NCBI RefSeq assembly: GCF_000023905.1
Contig: NC_013192.1
Location: 2,170,001-2,234,000, forward strand
From: Leptotrichia buccalis C-1013-b
GTDB lineage: Bacteria > Fusobacteriota > Fusobacteriia > Fusobacteriales > Leptotrichiaceae
DNA: 64,000 bases
Direction of reading: 5' to 3'
The translations under genes were made by a program, and so were the position numbers. Shown here one piece after another: positions 20,919-54,476 of this stretch (the first letter of the stretch is position 1; the number at the start of each line of letters is the position of its first letter). The notes beneath the pieces were generated by a model, which did not search any database, had not been told where the DNA came from, and saw only the letters and a list, made by a program, of their open reading frames with translations.

Positions 20919-21012
20919 ATTGTAGATATATTTGAATCTTTTATTGAATATTTATTATAAAAAAAGGGAGATATCCTGAATACACAGTTTATTTCCCATT
21001 TTATCTTTATTA

Positions 21013-21756
21013 TATATTAACCCCAATAGAAGTAAAATTTTACAATAAGTAATTCGATAGCTTTATTAAAAAAATCAAATTTAATTTTTAAGTATCTATC
21101 TTAAAGACTTTTATAATTTTATTTATAAATATTATGATTAATAATAGTTTTTTCTATTCAATTTTTTTGTAACGTAAGGGCAGTAGACGCCATGCCCTTT
21201 TTCGCAATAAAAGTTATTTTAACATGTATAACTGGTTATATATTAAAGATAATGGCGAAACGTTCTACGAACTACCCCGCTTTACACAAAACTTTCTTAT
21301 AAAAAAAAATAAAACTCGCTTCGTAAAACTACGCTCAGACAGTTATTTTTCCTTTAACGAAATTTTGCTTATTTAATATTTTCCAAATGTAAAAGCCTAG
21401 AATTTAAATATAATAAATCTATATAATCTTAGTACAGAATGTCGTGATTTTTTTGGAATGAAAACGATTGTCTGAGCGTTAGCGAGTTTCGTTTTTATTT
21501 CAAAAAAATGCTTAGACGAGCCAGGGTTGCAAGGGAAATGGCGACTGATTTCCCTTGCTTTATAAAAAGAAAAAATACAAGATTACGAAAAATATTTATT
21601 AATAATAAACAGTCTTTCAAACTCTAAATAAAAATCCCTTATATAGATACTTAATGACAAAATTTAATTAAAGGATATAATAGCATAATATTGTAAAAAA
21701 ATGACTTTAATTTCATGAATTTTTGATATTTGCTCTTTAAATGAGAAATAGTATTA
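21013..21756 (+). repeat. Divergent member of the structured TAATACTA-ended element family (744 bp)
   Basis: The gap between the HAD gene and holB has no gene. Its edges (ATATTAACCCCAATAG at the left; TTTAAATGAGAAATAGTATTA at the right) resemble the edges of the four elements at 25.0, 41.2, 47.8 and 53.9 kb. Inside, a perfect 11-bp hairpin (21529-21539 with 21548-21558, loop GGCGACTG) sits where those copies have a different-sequence hairpin with loop GGCAATGA. A long-range pairing joins 21312-21320 with 21481-21489 (9 bp) and 21331-21341 with 21469-21479 (11 bp). A short hairpin AAGGGCA/TGCCCTT lies near 21176-21199. Confidence 0.6.
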
Positions 21757-21767
21757 ATTTCTTCTTT

Positions 21768-22721
21768 TTAAGAACTTTGTAAAATGTCAAAAAAGTTAAA
21801 AATCACACTTTTCACATTTACATTACTTCTAATACTATTTTTCAAATTTATCAGTTTTTTCAATTCATCTGCTTCCACAGAATGTTTCACGTTTATAATG
21901 ATTTTTGAAAGAAAACTTATCAGAAATTCCTTTTCCTTTTTTAGTTCATTTTCAATTTCATTTATAAAAAAATACACATTTTCAATATCCCAAAAACGTA
22001 TTCGTCGTGCTAACAGTTCAATACTTTTATTATATTTTATTGTTAAATCTAGATTATTTTTTATAATAAATTCCCCAGTCATATAATTTTTCATTTCAAA
22101 AATAATTTGCAAAATATCTTCCACTGTATTAATTTTAAATTGAATATCCTCAAGTGAGAGATTTTGTCGTTTAAATTCTAAAATGTCGTTTTCATTTCCG
22201 TCAAAAAAATAATAAACTTCTTTGCTAACTCCCAGTTCATCGTTATTCATTCCAGATAGATGAAATTTAATTGTACGGGATTTTATTGTAGAAATGATAT
22301 TTAATGTTCTTGATAAAAGGATAAAGTATACATTTTGCGGGGGTTCTTCCAAAATTTTTAAAAGTGCGTTTGAAGATTCTTTTCGCAAGTTTTCGATTCC
22401 GCATAGAATAAATATCTTTTTTGGCGAGTTAAATGAAGATTCTATTGATGAATAAATGATTTCCCGCACTTCGTCAATTTTTATGTTTTCATTATTTTTA
22501 TTTATTATTTCAATATCAGGATGCTGGAGATTGTCAATAAGCCGTTCTATTTTCTCTCTTTCAGCGTCATTCTGCACATCCTTTGTCATAACCATTTTTG
22601 AAAACATTAGTGCATAAGAAAGCAAGTCAACTCTCTTATCACCGTAAAAGAGGTAACTTGCACTTATTTTATCTTGATTTATTTCGTTCTTAAATTTTTC
22701 TGTTATTTCCTGTAATTTCAT
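21768..22721 (-). CDS. holB: DNA polymerase III subunit delta'
   Basis: A 317-residue clamp-loader subunit. Typical are SYLFYGDKR near the N-terminus, NLQHPDIEII, the SSNALLKILEEPPQNVYFILLS segment and SRTIKFHLSG. The P-loop is degenerate (YGDKRVDLLS in place of a GxxGxGK motif), as expected for a non-ATPase delta' subunit. It works with DnaX. It lies 37 bases downstream of mreB on the same strand. A weak ribosome binding site (GAGAAAA) precedes its ATG. Confidence 0.88.
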   Translation of the reverse strand: MKLQEITEKFKNEINQDKISASYLFYGDKRVDLLSYALMFSKMVMTKDVQNDAEREKIERLIDNLQHPDIEIINKNNENIKIDEVREIIYSSIESSFNSPKKIFILCGIENLRKESSNALLKILEEPPQNVYFILLSRTLNIISTIKSRTIKFHLSGMNNDELGVSKEVYYFFDGNENDILEFKRQNLSLEDIQFKINTVEDILQIIFEMKNYMTGEFIIKNNLDLTIKYNKSIELLARRIRFWDIENVYFFINEIENELKKEKEFLISFLSKIIINVKHSVEADELKKLINLKNSIRSNVNVKSVIFNFFDILQSS

Positions 22722-25009: not shown

Positions 25010-25476
25010 TATACTAACCCCATTTAAATAACGAATTTATTACAAACTTTTCCAACAAAGGCTAAAAACCTAATATTTCTAAAGAATTAAAATATAATTT
25101 TTTTGTTTTAATAAACCGACGGAGCTTTTATTTGTTCAACTACGACTGTTTGACGACTATAAGGAGGAGTTTCGGAGTTGGGCAAATAAAAGTCGTAGTC
25201 TAGCCATAGGTATTGCGTAGCAATCTTGCCACAATTTTAATTATTAGGATAAACCTTTACTGCAAGATAAGGATTTGCGGCAATGAGCAATCCTGCGAAA
25301 AAAAAGAAAAAAACGAATAAAAATAGTAAAAACTGATATTAAATAAAATAATCTAATACTAAATCCCATTATAAAATAGAAACTATGTTAAGGACAAAAA
25401 GTTGTAATTTCTTACTAAAATAGTATGTAATTCAAAATTTATTAAATATTCGCTATTTAAACGGGAAATAGCATTA
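25010..25476 (+). repeat. Structured TAATACTA-ended element, copy 1
   Basis: The gap between the hydrolase and the first tRNA cluster holds one copy of a dispersed element, also at 41.2, 47.8 and 53.9 kb. Helix a (25125-25134, CTTTTATTTG) pairs with 25183-25192, and helix b (25140-25147, CTACGACT) pairs with 25191-25198, in a-b-a'-b' order. This copy has about 58 bp of extra DNA at 25208-25265, which breaks the left foot of the terminal hairpin (AGGATTTGC 25270-25278 still pairs). No gene is seen in it. Confidence 0.8.
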
Positions 25477-25606
25477 GTATAGCAACAATAATCCTTTCTA
25501 ATTTTGTAGAAGATATTAGTATATCATTTTTACTGTGTTCTAGGTGCTACACTTAATTATATAATACGCCTGTACAGAAAAAATAAAAATTTTAGAAAAA
25601 AAAGTG

Positions 25607-33653: not shown

Positions 33654-33790
33654 TTAAATAAGAAGAATCTACACTTTTTGAATCTTATTTAAATTTTTCT
33701 GATTTTAATCACGATAAGTACATCAACTCTTCCTCATTTAAAATTATTAAAAAATATAAAAAAATTAAATTATAAAAGGAGTGATTTATT

Positions 33791-34186
33791 ATGAAAAAAT
33801 TATTATTAGGTTTTATGTTTATTTGTGCTTGTGCAACAACTTATGCCTATCCAAAAAACATAAACATAACTAAAAGCGAAGGAGCTTACATAAGAGCTAA
33901 TTTCAGTACTTTATTTGGAAAAAATCAAATATGTCAAAGTATCGGTAGAACATACATTAATTTCCCTGCCATTTACGACGGTAAACGACCTGATTTAGAT
34001 AAGGCTCTATTAAATCTTATTAAAAGGGGAGATAGAAACTATACTTCACAAGTTTATAATACAGCAAGTGGTGAAATAGGAAATTGGTATTTCAATAATT
34101 GTAAATTATTTCCAAGTGGAATAAGAAAAATTAGAGCACTTGATTATTTTTATGGTTATATGATAGCCTTTGAAAATGAAGGTTAA
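33791..34186 (+). CDS. Small secreted protein, unknown function
   Basis: A 131-residue protein with a signal peptide (MKKLLLGFMFICACATTYAY). The mature part contains two cysteines (QICQSIG and NNCKLF) and aromatic-rich text (GNWYFNNC, ALDYFYGYM). The start has AAAAGGAGTGATTTATT, nearly the same leader as the 79-residue secreted gene at 3440. A decayed tandem copy follows at 34259. No family recognised. Confidence 0.7.
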   Translation: MKKLLLGFMFICACATTYAYPKNINITKSEGAYIRANFSTLFGKNQICQSIGRTYINFPAIYDGKRPDLDKALLNLIKRGDRNYTSQVYNTASGEIGNWYFNNCKLFPSGIRKIRALDYFYGYMIAFENEG

Positions 34187-34258
34187 GATTAAACGTTGAG
34201 TACAATTTGTAGGAACATTATCTAAATATTATATTTAAATAAAAAGGAATGATTTGTT

Positions 34259-34527
34259 ATGAAAAAATTGCTATTAGGTTTTATGTTTATTTGTGCTTGC
34301 GCAACAACTACGTATATTCTAGAGAACTAGCTGTAAAAAATAAGATTTGTCACAAGCACTTTTTAACCTTATAAGAAAAGCAGTTTCTAGCTATTATGGC
34401 TTTCAGATGAAGAAAATATAATATTATGGCATAAAATTGTGTTACATATAATGAAATTGAGGTTAGAAATAGTAAGGCTTTGGAATATTTTTATAAATAT
34501 GTTTCAATTTTTAATTTTCTGTATTGA
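34259..34527 (+). pseudogene. Decayed tandem copy of the secreted gene at 33791
   Basis: The ribosome binding site and first 17 codons repeat those of the upstream gene almost exactly (MKKLLLGFMFICACATT), but the frame stops at 34330. Later pieces in other frames still match it: NLIRKAVSSYYG (compare NLIKRGDRNYTS) and, ending at 34527, KALEYFYKYVSIFN (compare RALDYFYGYMIAFE). Several frameshifts therefore separate recognisable parts of a paralogue. The signal-peptide fragment alone could still be translated. Confidence 0.75.
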
Positions 34528-41176: not shown

Positions 41177-41588
41177 TAATACTATTTCTTCTTTAAATAG
41201 CGAATGTTTAATAAATTTTGAATTACATACTTTTTAGTAAGGAATTAAAACTTTTTGTCCTTAAAATAGTTTCTATTTTATAATGGGATTTAGTATTAGA
41301 TTATTTTATTTAATATTGGTTTTTACTATTTTTATTAGTTTTTTTCTTTTTTTTCGCAGGATTGCTCATTGCCGCAAATCCTGCACCTATGGCTAGACTA
41401 CGACTTTTATTTGCCCAACTCCGAAACTCCTCCTTCCAGTCGTCAAACAGTCGTAGCTGAACAAATAAAAGCTCCGTCAGTTTATTAAAACAAAAAAATT
41501 ATATTTTAATTATTTTGAAATACTAGGTTTTTATCCTTTGTTAGAAAAGTTTGTAATAAATTCGTTATTTAAATGGGGTTTAGTATTA
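41177..41588 (-). repeat. Structured TAATACTA-ended element, copy 2
   Basis: This 412-bp copy, in the opposite orientation to copies 1 and 4, fills most of the gap between adhE and gapN. Its ends TAATACTATTTC...TTTAAATAGCGAAT and the inverted ATTTAAATGGGGTTTAGTATTA form imperfect terminal inverted repeats of about 29 bp. Both helix pairs (CTTTTATTTG with CAAATAAAAG; CTACGACT with AGTCGTAG) are intact. Flanks are TTAA on both sides if the core is taken as TACTA...TAGTA. No gene is seen in it. Confidence 0.8.
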
Positions 41589-44411: not shown

Positions 44412-44429
44412 CATTTCAACTAGGAAATA

Positions 44430-44600
44430 AAAATAAAAAAGCGCCAGTCCTTTTGGAACAATCAATATAAACAATAAAATTTCAGAAGGAGACGAGGGAA
44501 AGAGTTATCGAAATATCGGCGGATGCTCTTTAGGTGGTTACAACCTTAATAATATACAAAAATTTCGAGTAATTGGGATTACAAAGGTATTATAGTAACG
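44430..44600 (+). ncRNA. glmS ribozyme (GlcN6P-activated self-cleaving riboswitch)
   Basis: The 5' UTR of glmS contains the conserved core: GCGCCAG at 44441, then GACGAGGGAAAGAGTTATCG, ATCGGCGGATGCTCTTTAGG and GGTTACAACC. These match the glmS ribozyme class in order and spacing. Cleavage is expected between A44440 and G44441, using glucosamine-6-phosphate as cofactor, leading to decay of the mRNA when the product of GlmS is plentiful. The 3' limit is approximate. Confidence 0.9.
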
Positions 44601-44636
44601 TTTTCTAGTAATTTTATATTATGAAGGAGAAATATT

Positions 44637-46466
44637 ATGTGTGGAATTGTAGGTTACATCGGAGCGAAAAATGCTCAGGAATTTGTTATTGACGGGTTGG
44701 AAAAATTAGAGTACAGAGGGTATGATTCAGCGGGGATTGCTGTTAATACTGGAAATGAAAAATTTGAGATTGTGAAAAAAGTTGGAAAATTACAAAATTT
44801 GGCTGATGAGCTGAAAAAAAATCCACTTTCAGGGACAGTTGCGATAGGGCATACAAGATGGGCAACTCATGGAAAGCCATCTGATGAAAATTCACACCCT
44901 CATTTTAACAAAGATAAAACATTAGTTGTTGTTCACAATGGAATCATTGAAAATTATCTGGAATTAAAAAAAGATTTAGTTGCAAAAGGATATGAGTTTA
45001 AGTCAGAAACTGATACCGAAGTTGTGGCACACTTGTTAGATGAGCTTTATACTGGGGACTTGCTTGAAACAGTAAAGAAATTGTTAAAAGTTATAAAAGG
45101 TGCCTATGCACTTGGAATTATGTCTGTGAACGAGCCTGACAGAATTATTGCGGCAAGAAAGGAAAGTCCGCTTATTGTAGGGCTTGGAAATGGAGAAAAC
45201 TTTATTGCGTCAGATATTCCTGCGATTTTGAAATATACTAGGGATGTATATTTGATTGAAAATAATGAAATTGTGGAAATAAAAAAAGATTCTGTAAAAA
45301 TTATGGATGTAGAAGGAAACGAGATAAAAAGAGACATAACTCATATTGAGTGGGATTTGGAAGCTGCTTCTAAAGGTGGATACGAGTATTTTATGGAAAA
45401 GGAAATTTTTGAACAGCCAGAAGTGCTTGTAAAAACTTTGAACAGCAGAGTTGATGAAAATTATAACATTAATTTTGATGATGCAGGACTTACAAAAGAG
45501 TATTTGAGCGGAATCAATGATATTTATATTGTAGCTTGCGGAACTGCTTATCATGCTGGGCTTGCTGGAAAGCATATTATTGAGAAAAAAACAAGAATCC
45601 GTGTAGATGTTGACATTGCGTCAGAATTTAGATATAGAAATCCTGTAATTGATGACAAGGCGTTGGTTATTGTGTTAAGCCAGTCTGGAGAAACTTTGGA
45701 CACGCTTGAGGCTATGAAAGAGGCGAAAAGACACGGGGCAAGAGTTGTTGCAATTTCAAATGTAGTTGGTTCTTCAATAGCAAGGGAAGCGGACCACGTT
45801 ATTTACACTTGGGCAGGACCTGAAATTGCCGTTGCTTCTACAAAGGCGTACACGACTCAAATGGTAATTTTAAATTTAATGGCAATAGATTTTGCATATA
45901 AATTTGGAAAAATTACAAAAGATGAAGCAGTTGAAGATATTAAAAAATTGTATGATGTAAAACAAAGCGTTCAGAAAATGTTAGAATATGATGAAAAAAT
46001 AAAAGATATCGCAGATAAGATTAAAGATAGCGAAAGTATGTTCTATCTTGGACGTGGGCTTGATTATGTAATCGCTGTGGAAGGTGCATTAAAATCTAAG
46101 GAAATTTCATATATTCATTCAGAAGCCTTTGCTTCAGGAGAATTGAAACATGGTACAATTGCACTTATTACAGATGGAGTGCCAGTTGTTGTAAACGTTA
46201 CACAGTCTGACTTATTTGAAAAATCAGTATCAAATATAAAAGAAGTTACTTCAAGAGGAGCTTACGTTATCGCAATTGCAAAAGAAGGAAATACAATTGT
46301 GGAAGAAGTTGCTGACGAAGTATTCTATATTCCAAATGTGGAAGATGATTACGCAGGATTCCCTACAATCGTAATTCATCAGTTATTGGCATATTATTTA
46401 TCAAAATTAAAAGGAAACGATGTTGATAAGCCAAGAAACTTGGCAAAATCAGTAACTGTGGAATAA
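44637..46466 (+). CDS. glmS: Glutamine-fructose-6-phosphate aminotransferase (isomerising)
   Basis: A 609-residue GlmS. The N-terminal glutaminase begins with the catalytic Cys2 (MCGIVGYIGAKNAQEFVIDG) and has GHTRWATHGKPS; two SIS domains follow (CGTAYHAGLAGKHIIE, LSQSGETLDTLEAM, SEAFASGELKHGTIALI), ending KPRNLAKSVTVE. It makes glucosamine-6-phosphate, the entry to UDP-GlcNAc for peptidoglycan and LPS. Expression is controlled by the glmS ribozyme immediately upstream; the next enzyme, GlmM, is encoded at 16.6 kb. Confidence 0.97.
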   Translation: MCGIVGYIGAKNAQEFVIDGLEKLEYRGYDSAGIAVNTGNEKFEIVKKVGKLQNLADELKKNPLSGTVAIGHTRWATHGKPSDENSHPHFNKDKTLVVVHNGIIENYLELKKDLVAKGYEFKSETDTEVVAHLLDELYTGDLLETVKKLLKVIKGAYALGIMSVNEPDRIIAARKESPLIVGLGNGENFIASDIPAILKYTRDVYLIENNEIVEIKKDSVKIMDVEGNEIKRDITHIEWDLEAASKGGYEYFMEKEIFEQPEVLVKTLNSRVDENYNINFDDAGLTKEYLSGINDIYIVACGTAYHAGLAGKHIIEKKTRIRVDVDIASEFRYRNPVIDDKALVIVLSQSGETLDTLEAMKEAKRHGARVVAISNVVGSSIAREADHVIYTWAGPEIAVASTKAYTTQMVILNLMAIDFAYKFGKITKDEAVEDIKKLYDVKQSVQKMLEYDEKIKDIADKIKDSESMFYLGRGLDYVIAVEGALKSKEISYIHSEAFASGELKHGTIALITDGVPVVVNVTQSDLFEKSVSNIKEVTSRGAYVIAIAKEGNTIVEEVADEVFYIPNVEDDYAGFPTIVIHQLLAYYLSKLKGNDVDKPRNLAKSVTVE

Positions 46467-47116: not shown

Positions 47117-47156
47117 TTATTTAATAATTATAAATAAAAAAATGGAGGAAAAGATT

Positions 47157-47468
47157 ATGAAATTTGATGATTTAAAAAAAGGTGCAGAAGATGCATTGAA
47201 AAAAACTGTAGATGGAGCAAAAGACTTGGCTGACAAAGCTGCTGACAAAACAAAGGAAATTGCAGGAAGCGAAGTTGCTCAAAATATAAAAAAAGGAACT
47301 GAAGAAGTTTTTGAAAAAACAGTAGAAGGAGCAAAAGATTTAGCTAATAAAGCAGCAAACAACAAAATTGTTAAAGATGTGGAAAAAGGTGCTGAAAAAG
47401 CAGTAGATAAAACTGTAGAAGGAGCAAAGGACTTAGCTGGTAAAGTTACTGGAATGTTTAAAAAATAG
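47157..47468 (+). CDS. Helical repeat protein (LEA/CsbD-like), unknown function
   Basis: A 103-residue, very charged protein made of three near-identical units of the type KKTVDGAKDLADKAA, KTVEGAKDLANKAA and KTVEGAKDLAGKV, spaced about 40 and 36 residues apart and all alpha-helix forming. There is no signal peptide. Amphipathic 11-residue-like periodicity recalls late-embryogenesis-abundant or stress proteins, but no family is certain. ATG 47157 is chosen since GGAGG sits eight bases before it; ATG 47142 precedes that site. A clear terminator follows. Confidence 0.7.
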   Translation: MKFDDLKKGAEDALKKTVDGAKDLADKAADKTKEIAGSEVAQNIKKGTEEVFEKTVEGAKDLANKAANNKIVKDVEKGAEKAVDKTVEGAKDLAGKVTGMFKK

Positions 47469-47530: not shown

Positions 47531-47581
47531 AAAAAAAATTTTGAAAAATCAAAAAAATGTGGTAAAATAATTTTGTGGTAA

Positions 47582-47763
47582 GTTAAAGTAGAGTATCCAT
47601 TAAAACAAGGATTGAAACATCTTGAGATCAAACCCTCCATAAATAAAAATTTATAGTTAAAGTAGAGTATCCATTAAAATAAGGATTGAAACTAATTGGA
47701 TGAGCTCTAAACTCATCTGTTTGGTTTGGTTAAATAGAGTATCCATCAAAACAAGGATTAAAC
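47582..47763 (+). CRISPR. Orphan mini-CRISPR, three repeats, two spacers
   Basis: Repeat 1 (47582-47618) and repeat 2 (47656-47692) are 37 bp and differ at one base; both begin GTTAAAGTAGAGTATCC and end GGATTGAAAC. Repeat 3 (47729-47763) is degenerate (two one-base deletions and two changes), as expected at the old end. The spacers are 37 bp (47619-47655) and 36 bp (47693-47728) and are unrelated to each other. The ATTGAAAC end is typical of type I and III systems. No cas genes are in the window. A TTGAAA-16-TAAAAT promoter-like sequence lies in the A/T-rich leader before repeat 1. Confidence 0.85.
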
Positions 47764-47769
47764 TATTCG

Positions 47770-47825: not shown

Positions 47826-48227
47826 TATACTATTCCCCGTTTAAATAGCGAATGTTTAATAAATTTTGAATTACATACTATTTAGTAAGGAATTAAAACT
47901 TTTGTCCTTAATATAGTTTCTATTTTATAAGGGATTTAGTATTAGATTATTTTATTTACTATCGGTTTTTACTATTTTTATTAGTTTTTTTTCGCAGGAT
48001 TGCTCATTGCCGCAAATCCTGCACCTATGGCTAGACTACGACTTTTATTTGCCCAACTCCGAAACTCCTCCTTGCAGTCGTCAAACAGTCGTAGTTAAAC
48101 AAATAAAAGCTCCGTCGGTTTATTAAAACAAAAAAAATTATATTTTAATTATTTTGAAATACTAAGTTTTTATCCTTTGTTGGAAAAGTTTATAATAAAT
48201 TCGTTATTTAAATGGGGTTTAGTATTA
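47826..48227 (-). repeat. Structured TAATACTA-ended element, copy 3
   Basis: This 402-bp copy has the same orientation as copy 2 and lies 60 bp beyond the mini-CRISPR. The ends are TATACTATTCCCCGTTTAAA and the inverted TTTAAATGGGGTTTAGTATTA. Both helix pairs and the terminal hairpin GCAGGATTGC/GCAAATCCTGC are intact. No gene is seen in it. Confidence 0.8.
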
Positions 48228-48259
48228 AATATTTTACTCTATCAAATTTTTAAAATATT

Positions 48260-53884: not shown

Positions 53885-54437
53885 TAATACTAAACTCCAT
53901 TTGAATAACGAATTTATTACAAACTTTTCCAACAAAAGATAAAAATCTAGTATTTCAAAATAATTAAAATATAATTTTTTTTGTTTTAATAAACCGACGG
54001 AGCTTTTATTTGTTCAGCTACGACTGTTTGACGACTATAAGGAGGAGTTTCGGAGTTGGGCAAATAAAAGTCGTAGTCTAGCCATAGGTGCAGGATTTGC
54101 GGCAATGAGCAATCCTGCAAAAAAAAAGAAAGAAACTAATATTAGGCTGTGTCTGAAAACTCAAAATCTATGTTATTTTTAATATTTTTTTGATTTTATA
54201 AATTATACAAATCACGATAAAATCAGTGTTTATTATTTTTGATTTTGGAAAAATTTGTTAAAAATTCATCATTTGGAGAGTTTTCAGACACGCCCTAAAT
54301 AAAATAATCTAATACTAAAGCCCATTATAAAATAGAAACTATGTTAAGAACAAAAAGTTTTAATTCCTTATTAACTAAAAATAGTATGTAATTCAAAATT
54401 TATTAAATATTTGCTATTTAAAGGGGAAATAGTATTA
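53885..54437 (+). repeat. Structured TAATACTA-ended element, copy 4 (interrupted by a MITE)
   Basis: This copy has the orientation of copy 1, with ends TAATACTAAACTCC and GGGGAAATAGTATTA. Both helix pairs are intact, and the terminal hairpin is 54090-54100 with 54109-54118, loop GGCAATGA. A 151-bp inverted-repeat element sits inside it at 54145-54295, and about 16 bp present in other copies is missing next to it. It ends 40 bases before the MFS gene start. Confidence 0.8.
54145..54295. mobile_element. MITE-like element, 151 bp, nested in copy 4
   Basis: GGCTGTGTCTGAAAACTC at the left and GAGTTTTCAGACACGCCC at the right are inverted copies with two mismatches. TA flanks both sides (54143-54144 and 54296-54297), while the other copies of the host element have a single TA at that place, so the insertion duplicated TA. 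It has no coding capacity. TA duplication fits IS630/mariner-like or some IS5-group transposases, which are not in this window. Confidence 0.8.
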
Positions 54438-54476
54438 GAATTAACAAAATATCTAAAAGAAAAGGAGATAGAAAAA

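What the first reader, a model, noticed from the sequence alone, without database searches (positions are those of the whole stretch)
21013..21756. Divergent family member whose terminal hairpin shows covariation
The gene-free 744 bp before holB share edge motifs with the four copies and a similar order of parts. Where they have GCAGGATTTGC/GCAATCCTGC with loop GGCAATGA (54090-54118), this one has GCAAGGGAAAT/ATTTCCCTTGC with loop GGCGACTG (21529-21558). The stem sequence is different but still pairs perfectly, and the loop stays at eight bases beginning GGC. Preceding text is also alike (TAGACGAGCCAGGGTTGCA here, TAGCCATAGGTGCA there). Pairing kept while the sequence changes is the classic sign of a functional RNA.
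Basis: partly seen in the sequence, partly recalled or inferred. Interest (0 to 1): 0.75.

Follow-up and report, generated by a model that had tools for sequence, protein, structure and literature searches.

The report
Mobile element with co-varying hairpin arms
The gap next to holB holds a small gene-free jumping element carrying two copies of a folded module that keeps its shape while its sequence changes; the same tip of this fold sits on unrelated stems in many other bacterial phyla, apparently undescribed.

Summary
Window 21013-21753 is a gene-free mobile element: orthologous sites in three related species are empty, filled sites show a likely TTA duplication, and its ends match the four other copies. 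It carries two outward-facing copies of a structured module ("arm"); each of the four copies carries one. A covariance model built only from this region's arm type recovers all four copies (E 2e-8 to 6e-6); a sequence-only profile from the same seed does not (E 0.04-1.6). Over 123 distinct arms from the genus, 36 of 39 pairs show changes on both sides and 96% of cells pair (shuffled 75%, slid 44-54%). G·T far exceeds A·C, so one defined strand folds. That it is a "functional RNA" is not shown: the arms ride on mobile elements, and the helix tip resembles extraordinarily stable DNA mini-hairpins (GNA/GNNA loops), so folded single-stranded DNA is at least as likely. Unexpectedly, the tip motif ACTGTYTGAGC-N-GCGAGTTT caps stems of unrelated sequence in genomes of many phyla (up to 129 exact copies per genome; reversed-pattern control 0). 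No Rfam family, transposase association or paper was found in the sources searched. What drives or uses the arms is unknown.

The parts
21010..21012 (.). likely target-site duplication TTA, left
   Evidence: comparison with empty sites in sister species G001, G006, G012
21013..21753 (.). whole mobile element (two-arm type)
   Evidence: present in G000, G004, G003, G008; absent in G001, G006, G012
21013..21032 (+). left terminal inverted repeat, degenerate (TATATTAACCCC; G004 has GACTAAACCCCATTTAAA)
21176..21369 (-). left arm, facing outwards: P3 hairpin 21176-21199, optional inserted hairpin about 21200-21262, P1/P2
   Evidence: model R1 hit 21260-21369 minus, E 4e-4; reading of the sequence
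21312..21343 (-). apical cap motif of the left arm (ACTGTCTGAGC...GCGAGTTT)
   Evidence: sequence
21440..21560 (+). right arm: P1, bulge, P2, linker, P3
   Evidence: model R1 148 bits (seed member); fold z -4.9
21467..21489 (+). apical cap motif of the right arm (ATTGTCTGAGC-GTTA-GCGAGTTT)
   Evidence: sequence
21529..21558 (+).
   Evidence: sequence, covariation
21736..21753 (-). right terminal inverted repeat TACTATTTCTCATTTAAA
   Evidence: pattern match in this genome
21754..21756 (.). likely target-site duplication TTA, right
25010..25480 (+). related one-arm element; arm 25117-25237 (extra hairpin inserted before P3 at about 25270-25296)
41177..41588 (-). related one-arm element; arm 41354-41479
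47827..48229 (-). related one-arm element; arm 47992-48117
53885..54441 (+). related one-arm element; arm 53995-54120; interrupted by an insertion at about 54145-54296

Best explanation
The region is a non-autonomous mobile element (MITE-like: terminal inverted repeats, likely 3-bp TTA target duplication, no gene) that carries two outward-facing copies of a folded module; the four other copies carry one module each inside similar ends. The module (P1 of 3-4 bp, 3-nt bulge, P2 of about 20 bp capped by a conserved internal-loop motif with a mini-hairpin, linker, P3 of 10-11 bp with an 8-nt loop beginning GGC) is kept by selection for folding of one defined strand. Shown: insertion polymorphism, homology of the two types, compensatory changes, strand asymmetry of G-T over A-C. 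Inferred: it moves by a transposase supplied in trans (none identified), and the arm works as a single-stranded nucleic acid recognised by a host or element protein, more likely as single-stranded DNA during mobilisation or replication than as a transcript, because of the DNA-type loops and the tie to mobile elements.
For: Empty versus filled holB sites. TIR family dispersed in 13/13 genus genomes, reversed control 0. Sequence-family copies in this genome. Model from D-type arms finds all four one-arm copies in the window, E 2e-8 to 6e-6, and none elsewhere in the window apart from D's own second arm and an antisense hit on the same palindrome, while a sequence HMM from the same seed gives E 0.04-1.6. 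36/39 pairs with double changes, 860 cells with double changes vs 179 shuffled. G-T 379 vs A-C 40 on the model-fitted alignment, and 50 vs 0 on the MAFFT alignment not fitted to structure (my count from the table). A mosaic arm in G012 joins the P2 of one type to the P3 of the other. Cap loops GNA 60/78 of triloops in other phyla; GNYA 36 vs GNRA 11 among GNNA tetraloops; such loops make extraordinarily stable DNA mini-hairpins (PMC4686876).
Against: No transposase with these ends was found in this genome (incomplete search). The TTA duplication rests on few sites and the left end of the window copy is degenerate. G-U excess, the long linker and internal loops would fit an RNA equally well, and some tetraloops are GNRA. 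Arms also occur without recognisable TACTAAACC ends. Cells in the pair counts are not independent events, and the 123-arm alignment was fitted to the structure.
Confidence: 0.72

Rival explanations
1. The arm is a functional non-coding RNA (or a structured 3'-UTR element) that hitch-hikes on mobile elements; P1-P3 fold in the transcript and a protein reads the cap and the P3 loop.
For: Deep covariation with strong G-U over A-C on one strand; arm strand folds better than its complement, -44.7 vs -30.8 kcal/mol; optional hairpins inserted at loop or helix-end positions; in other phyla the cap favours convergent over divergent intergenic spaces, 18 vs 5.
Against: No Rfam match; apical loops are GNYA more often than GNRA; copies on both strands in one element would need divergent transcripts; no expression data available; the element is mobile and absent in sister species.
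Confidence: 0.3
2. The paired changes are not selected: they come from template switching or gene conversion between the arms of a palindrome, which rewrites both sides at once.
For: Near-perfect Watson-Crick stems of arbitrary sequence in other phyla are what such a process would leave; inversion of the inner part in G003 and G008 shows recombination between inverted copies.
Against: It predicts no G-T excess over A-C, but 50 vs 0 and 379 vs 40 are seen in Leptotrichia; the same geometry (bulge, linker, 8-nt loop beginning GGC) is kept across types with unrelated stems.
Confidence: 0.1
3. The arms are REP/REPIN-like units moved by a Y1 (RAYT/IS200-type) transposase acting on single-stranded hairpins.
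For: Inverted pairs of hairpins, high copy number, intergenic placement; Y1 genes present in 10 of 13 genus genomes.
Against: G002, G003, G010 have no Y1 match but 51-66 arms; GTAG tag not conserved (D arms have CTTAGAC); TIRs and target duplications point to a cut-and-paste enzyme.
Confidence: 0.07

Closest known systems
MITEs and other small mobile sequences of bacteria (reviewed in PMC2229807)
   Same: Short, gene-free, multicopy, terminal inverted repeats, probable target duplication, intergenic, folds into long hairpins, presence/absence between relatives.
   Different: Carries a module with its own conserved fold that is shared between different ends (TACTAAACC... and, in G007, GACAGAGTAAA... 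with about 9-10 bp duplications); no partner IS known.
REPs, BIMEs and REPINs with RAYT transposases (PMC3116915, PMC3733652)
   Same: Dispersed palindromes, inverted pairs, conserved features with variable stems.
   Different: Arm is about 120 nt, not 20-40; conserved part is the apical cap, not a GTAG or CGTC foot; no link to Y1 genes.
Extraordinarily stable DNA mini-hairpins GC(GNA or GNNA)GC (PMC4686876 and works by Hirao cited there)
   Same: The tip of the cap, GC-GNA-GC or GC-GNNA-GC, is this motif in most copies from other phyla.
   Different: Those are in-vitro characterised oligonucleotides; here the tip sits in a longer conserved cap on free stems in genomes.
Modular pneumococcal BOX elements (from memory, not tested)
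   Same: Modular mobile repeats with optional internal pieces and RNA-like folding.
   Different: No sequence relation was tested or claimed.

Membership tests
MITE | terminal inverted repeats | tested here: met
   TACTAAACCCCATTTAAA / TACTATTTC(C/T)C(G/A)TTTAAA in 13/13 genus genomes, reversed control 0; the window copy's left end is degenerate
MITE | target-site duplication and empty sites | tested here: met
   likely TTA at holB; empty in G001, G006, G012
MITE | no transposase gene inside | tested here: met
   no ORF of 80 aa or more inside 21013-21753
MITE | ends shared with an autonomous IS | tested here: inconclusive
   none seen near 12 stretches with TIRs lacking an exact partner; the one DDE transposase found belongs to an unrelated IS5-like insertion
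REP/REPIN-RAYT | GTAG or CGTC tag at the hairpin foot | tested here: not met
   D arms have CTTAGAC, others GTAGAC or GAAGAC at that place
REP/REPIN-RAYT | associated Y1 transposase | tested here: not met
   absent in G002, G003, G010 despite 51-66 arms
known Rfam RNA family | match to a covariance model | tested here: not met
   no arm matched at gathering score in the window or at E up to 1 in seven loci
functional structured RNA | compensatory changes beyond chance | tested here: met
   36/39 pairs; 0/500 shuffles reach observed values; slid controls far lower
functional structured RNA | transcription of the arm strand | not testable with these tools
   no expression data
stable DNA mini-hairpin GC(GNA/GNNA)GC | GNA or GNNA loop on at least two G-C pairs | tested here: met
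   60/78 triloops GNA in other phyla (8/17 in Leptotrichia), 47/65 tetraloops GNNA over all sets; definition from PMC4686876

The most novel reading that the evidence does not exclude
A conserved apical cap, ACTGTYTGAGC-GNA/GNNA-GCGAGTTT, sits on stems of free sequence as a dispersed repeat in genomes of many bacterial phyla. It would be an undescribed, very widespread class of foldback selfish elements recognised by the shape of one folded strand, of which the Leptotrichia arms are one local form.
Probability: 0.45. Interest if true: 0.85.

Novelty: new variant of a known kind. Interest (0 to 1): 0.62.

Why it matters
Small non-coding repeats make up much of the intergenic space of some bacteria, and what moves or keeps them is often unknown. 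Here the structure, not the sequence, is what is conserved, the folded strand is known, and the same cap recurs across phyla, so one can ask directly which protein reads it and whether it reads RNA or single-stranded DNA.

Tried and rejected
Coding origin of the P3 region was considered by eye (the A-type P3 region reads in frame, the D-type does not) and dropped. Rho-independent terminator: P3 is not followed by a T run on either strand (by eye). Rfam families: none. RAYT/IS200 mobilisation: rejected by distribution. Autonomous partner with the same ends: not found; the 141-aa DDE protein near two A copies belongs to an IS5-like IS (GGGCGTGTCTGAAAACT ends, apparent CTAG duplication) that landed in an A copy. 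Transposase neighbours of the cap in other phyla: none among the most frequent families in 92 neighbouring ORFs. Phage origin: few hits, 7 viral contigs vs 1 for the reversed control. Cross-phylum G-T versus A-C test: uninformative, 27 vs 23 over 8 positions. Literature for the sequence itself: nothing in the open-access library; an intrastrand-triplex paper (PMC4666352) and REP papers were read in part and describe other motifs. Phylum-wide covariance search failed twice for technical reasons.

Full report
1. Setting. The window lies in a 2,465,610-bp single-contig genome (G000:C1:2170001-2234000). The size fits Leptotrichia buccalis C-1013-b, from memory only; a close named relative with the module is Leptotrichia sp. 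oral taxon 879 (L275). The gene at 21768-22721 (minus) is holB-like (PF13177). No ORF of 80 aa or more lies inside 21013-21753.

2. The observation. The hairpin is exactly as read, 11 perfect pairs and an 8-nt loop at 21529-21558. The compared hairpin of the other copies has one bulged T. Plain blastn between the two regions shows one clear match, the 31-nt right end (84%, E 2e-5). So by sequence alone the relation would be doubtful.

3. Both are one family. Searching this genome with each region gives two dispersed families. All arms, seen in their own direction, fold alike: P1 (GUC/GAC in D, GAC/GUC in the window's A copies, itself a double change), a 3-nt bulge, P2 of about 20 bp, a conserved cap, P1 3' side, a linker, and P3. 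A covariance model built only from 17 D-type arms recovers the four window copies at 47992-48117 (E 2e-8), 41354-41479 (3e-8), 53995-54120 (4e-8) and 25117-25237 (6e-6), plus a second, opposite arm of D at 21260-21369 (4e-4). A sequence-only HMM from the same alignment gives the four copies E 0.04, 0.8, 0.9 and 1.6. Structure makes the link. The converse model was not built. Mosaic arms in G012 join the P2 of one type to the P3 of the other.

4. Covariation. In the MAFFT alignment of 17 D arms, 9 of 39 pairs show double changes. In 123 distinct arms of the genus, 36 of 39 pairs do; 96.0% of cells pair against 75.2% when shuffled and 43.6-53.5% when slid. P3 stems include GCAAGGGAAAT, GTAAAGGGGAT, GCAAAGGGGA, GTAAGGGCAT, GCAGGGAGAT, GCAGAGGTAT, GCAAGGGGGA, GCAGGGGTGC, each with its complement (two G-T wobbles in the last), and a loop beginning GGC. 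The larger alignment was fitted to the model and leans towards it; the P3 list and the MAFFT alignment were not. G-T cells exceed A-C cells 379 to 40, and 50 to 0 in the MAFFT alignment (my count's table). Neutral decay of an inverted repeat, or template switching, would treat the two alike; selection on one folded strand would not. These are cells, not independent events.

5. It is mobile. At the holB site G000 and G004 hold the element in the same direction; G003 and G008 hold it with the inner two-arm part inverted; G001, G006 and G012 are empty (...TTTATTAATTT... and close variants). Filled sites in G000 and G004 end ...TTTATTA at the left flank and restart TTAATTT after the right end GAAATAGTA, which gives a likely TTA duplication. 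G010 and G002 hold one-arm elements close to the same place. The end motif occurs in all 13 genus genomes with no match to the reversed control. G007 shows a recent burst of the arm inside other ends (GACAGAGTAAAATATTTAGGGG / CCCCTAAAATTTTTAAACCATC) with duplications of about 9-10 bp in the four cases measured. So the module travels with more than one set of ends. In the family search 58-78 matches per genome were found in the eight most richly populated species (lower bounds, since only 83 candidates were scored per genome), 2-38 in the other five, and weak ones in one other genus, G020.

6. Beyond the genus. Flanks were not used for the search, yet each of the 8 bp next to the cap is Watson-Crick in 79-90% of 117 distinct copies (41% paired over 12 positions when flanks are shuffled), with 94 different 8-nt stems. 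Exact copies per genome reach 71 in Clostridium peptidivorans and 129 in a Proteobacteria MAG, reversed control 0 in all 18 genomes. In C. peptidivorans many come as outward-facing pairs about 280-550 nt apart, as in the holB element, each arm being a long palindrome between ATTTTTAATGTTGAAC-like ends. The cap's end loop is GNA in 60/78 triloops from other phyla (8/17 in Leptotrichia) and GNNA in 47/65 tetraloops over all sets, and the third base is a pyrimidine in 36 of those 47. GC-GNA-GC and GC-GNNA-GC are the extraordinarily stable, nuclease-resistant DNA mini-hairpins (PMC4686876); RNA GNRA loops would need a purine there. A few of the pattern hits will be chance.

7. How it most likely works. 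Shown: mobility, one homologous fold, selection-like covariation, one folding strand. Inferred: a transposase in trans moves the units by their ends; the arm matters as a folded single strand. I favour single-stranded DNA (loops, tie to mobile units in more than one phylum) over RNA, without proof. A Y1/RAYT driver is unlikely, since three genomes with 51-66 arms lack the family. Neighbouring genes in other phyla are ordinary, with no transposase among the frequent families. No autonomous partner was found in this genome.

8. Novelty. As a mobile gene-free repeat it is a new variant of a known kind. The cross-phylum cap is the surprising part; I found no Rfam family and no paper with the sequence, but subscription papers are not in the library and a full GTDB count was not possible.

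Noticed in passing
Genome-contig loci L221-L339; genomes G033-G044: Cap motif ACTGTYTGAGC-N-GCGAGTTT on stems of unrelated sequence across many phyla, up to 129 exact copies per genome, often as outward-facing pairs.
   Followed up: partly
L124, L125 (G003, G008), holB site: The inner two-arm part of the element is inverted relative to G000 and G004 at the orthologous site, suggesting recombination between inverted parts.
   Followed up: partly
25219-25268; L003, L021, L065, L069, L137: Optional extra hairpin (TGCGTAGCA...TTGCGA) inserted at the foot of P3 in both arm types.
   Followed up: no
G007, L090-L108: Recent amplification of near-identical arm elements with other terminal repeats and about 9-10 bp target duplications.
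   Followed up: partly
54145-54296: Palindromic insert with IS5-like ends (GGCTGTGTCTGAAAACT...) inside a one-arm copy; a longer relative with a 141-aa DDE transposase fragment lies at L375:2041-2979.
   Followed up: partly
47581-47764: Short CRISPR remnant (three repeats, two matching Rfam CRISPR-DR7) next to the one-arm copy at 47827-48229.
   Followed up: no
44429-44604: glmS ribozyme (RF00234, 97 bits) upstream of the ORF at 44637.
   Followed up: no
33774-33841 and 34242-34309: Two 68-nt copies (93%) of a gene start with the same signal-peptide-like sequence.
   Followed up: no
47158-47445: In-frame repeat of about 90-114 nt inside the small ORF 47142-47468.
   Followed up: no
L153 (G012:583400-592200): Five arms of two types within 8.8 kb, three of them 3.5-3.9 kb apart.
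   Followed up: no
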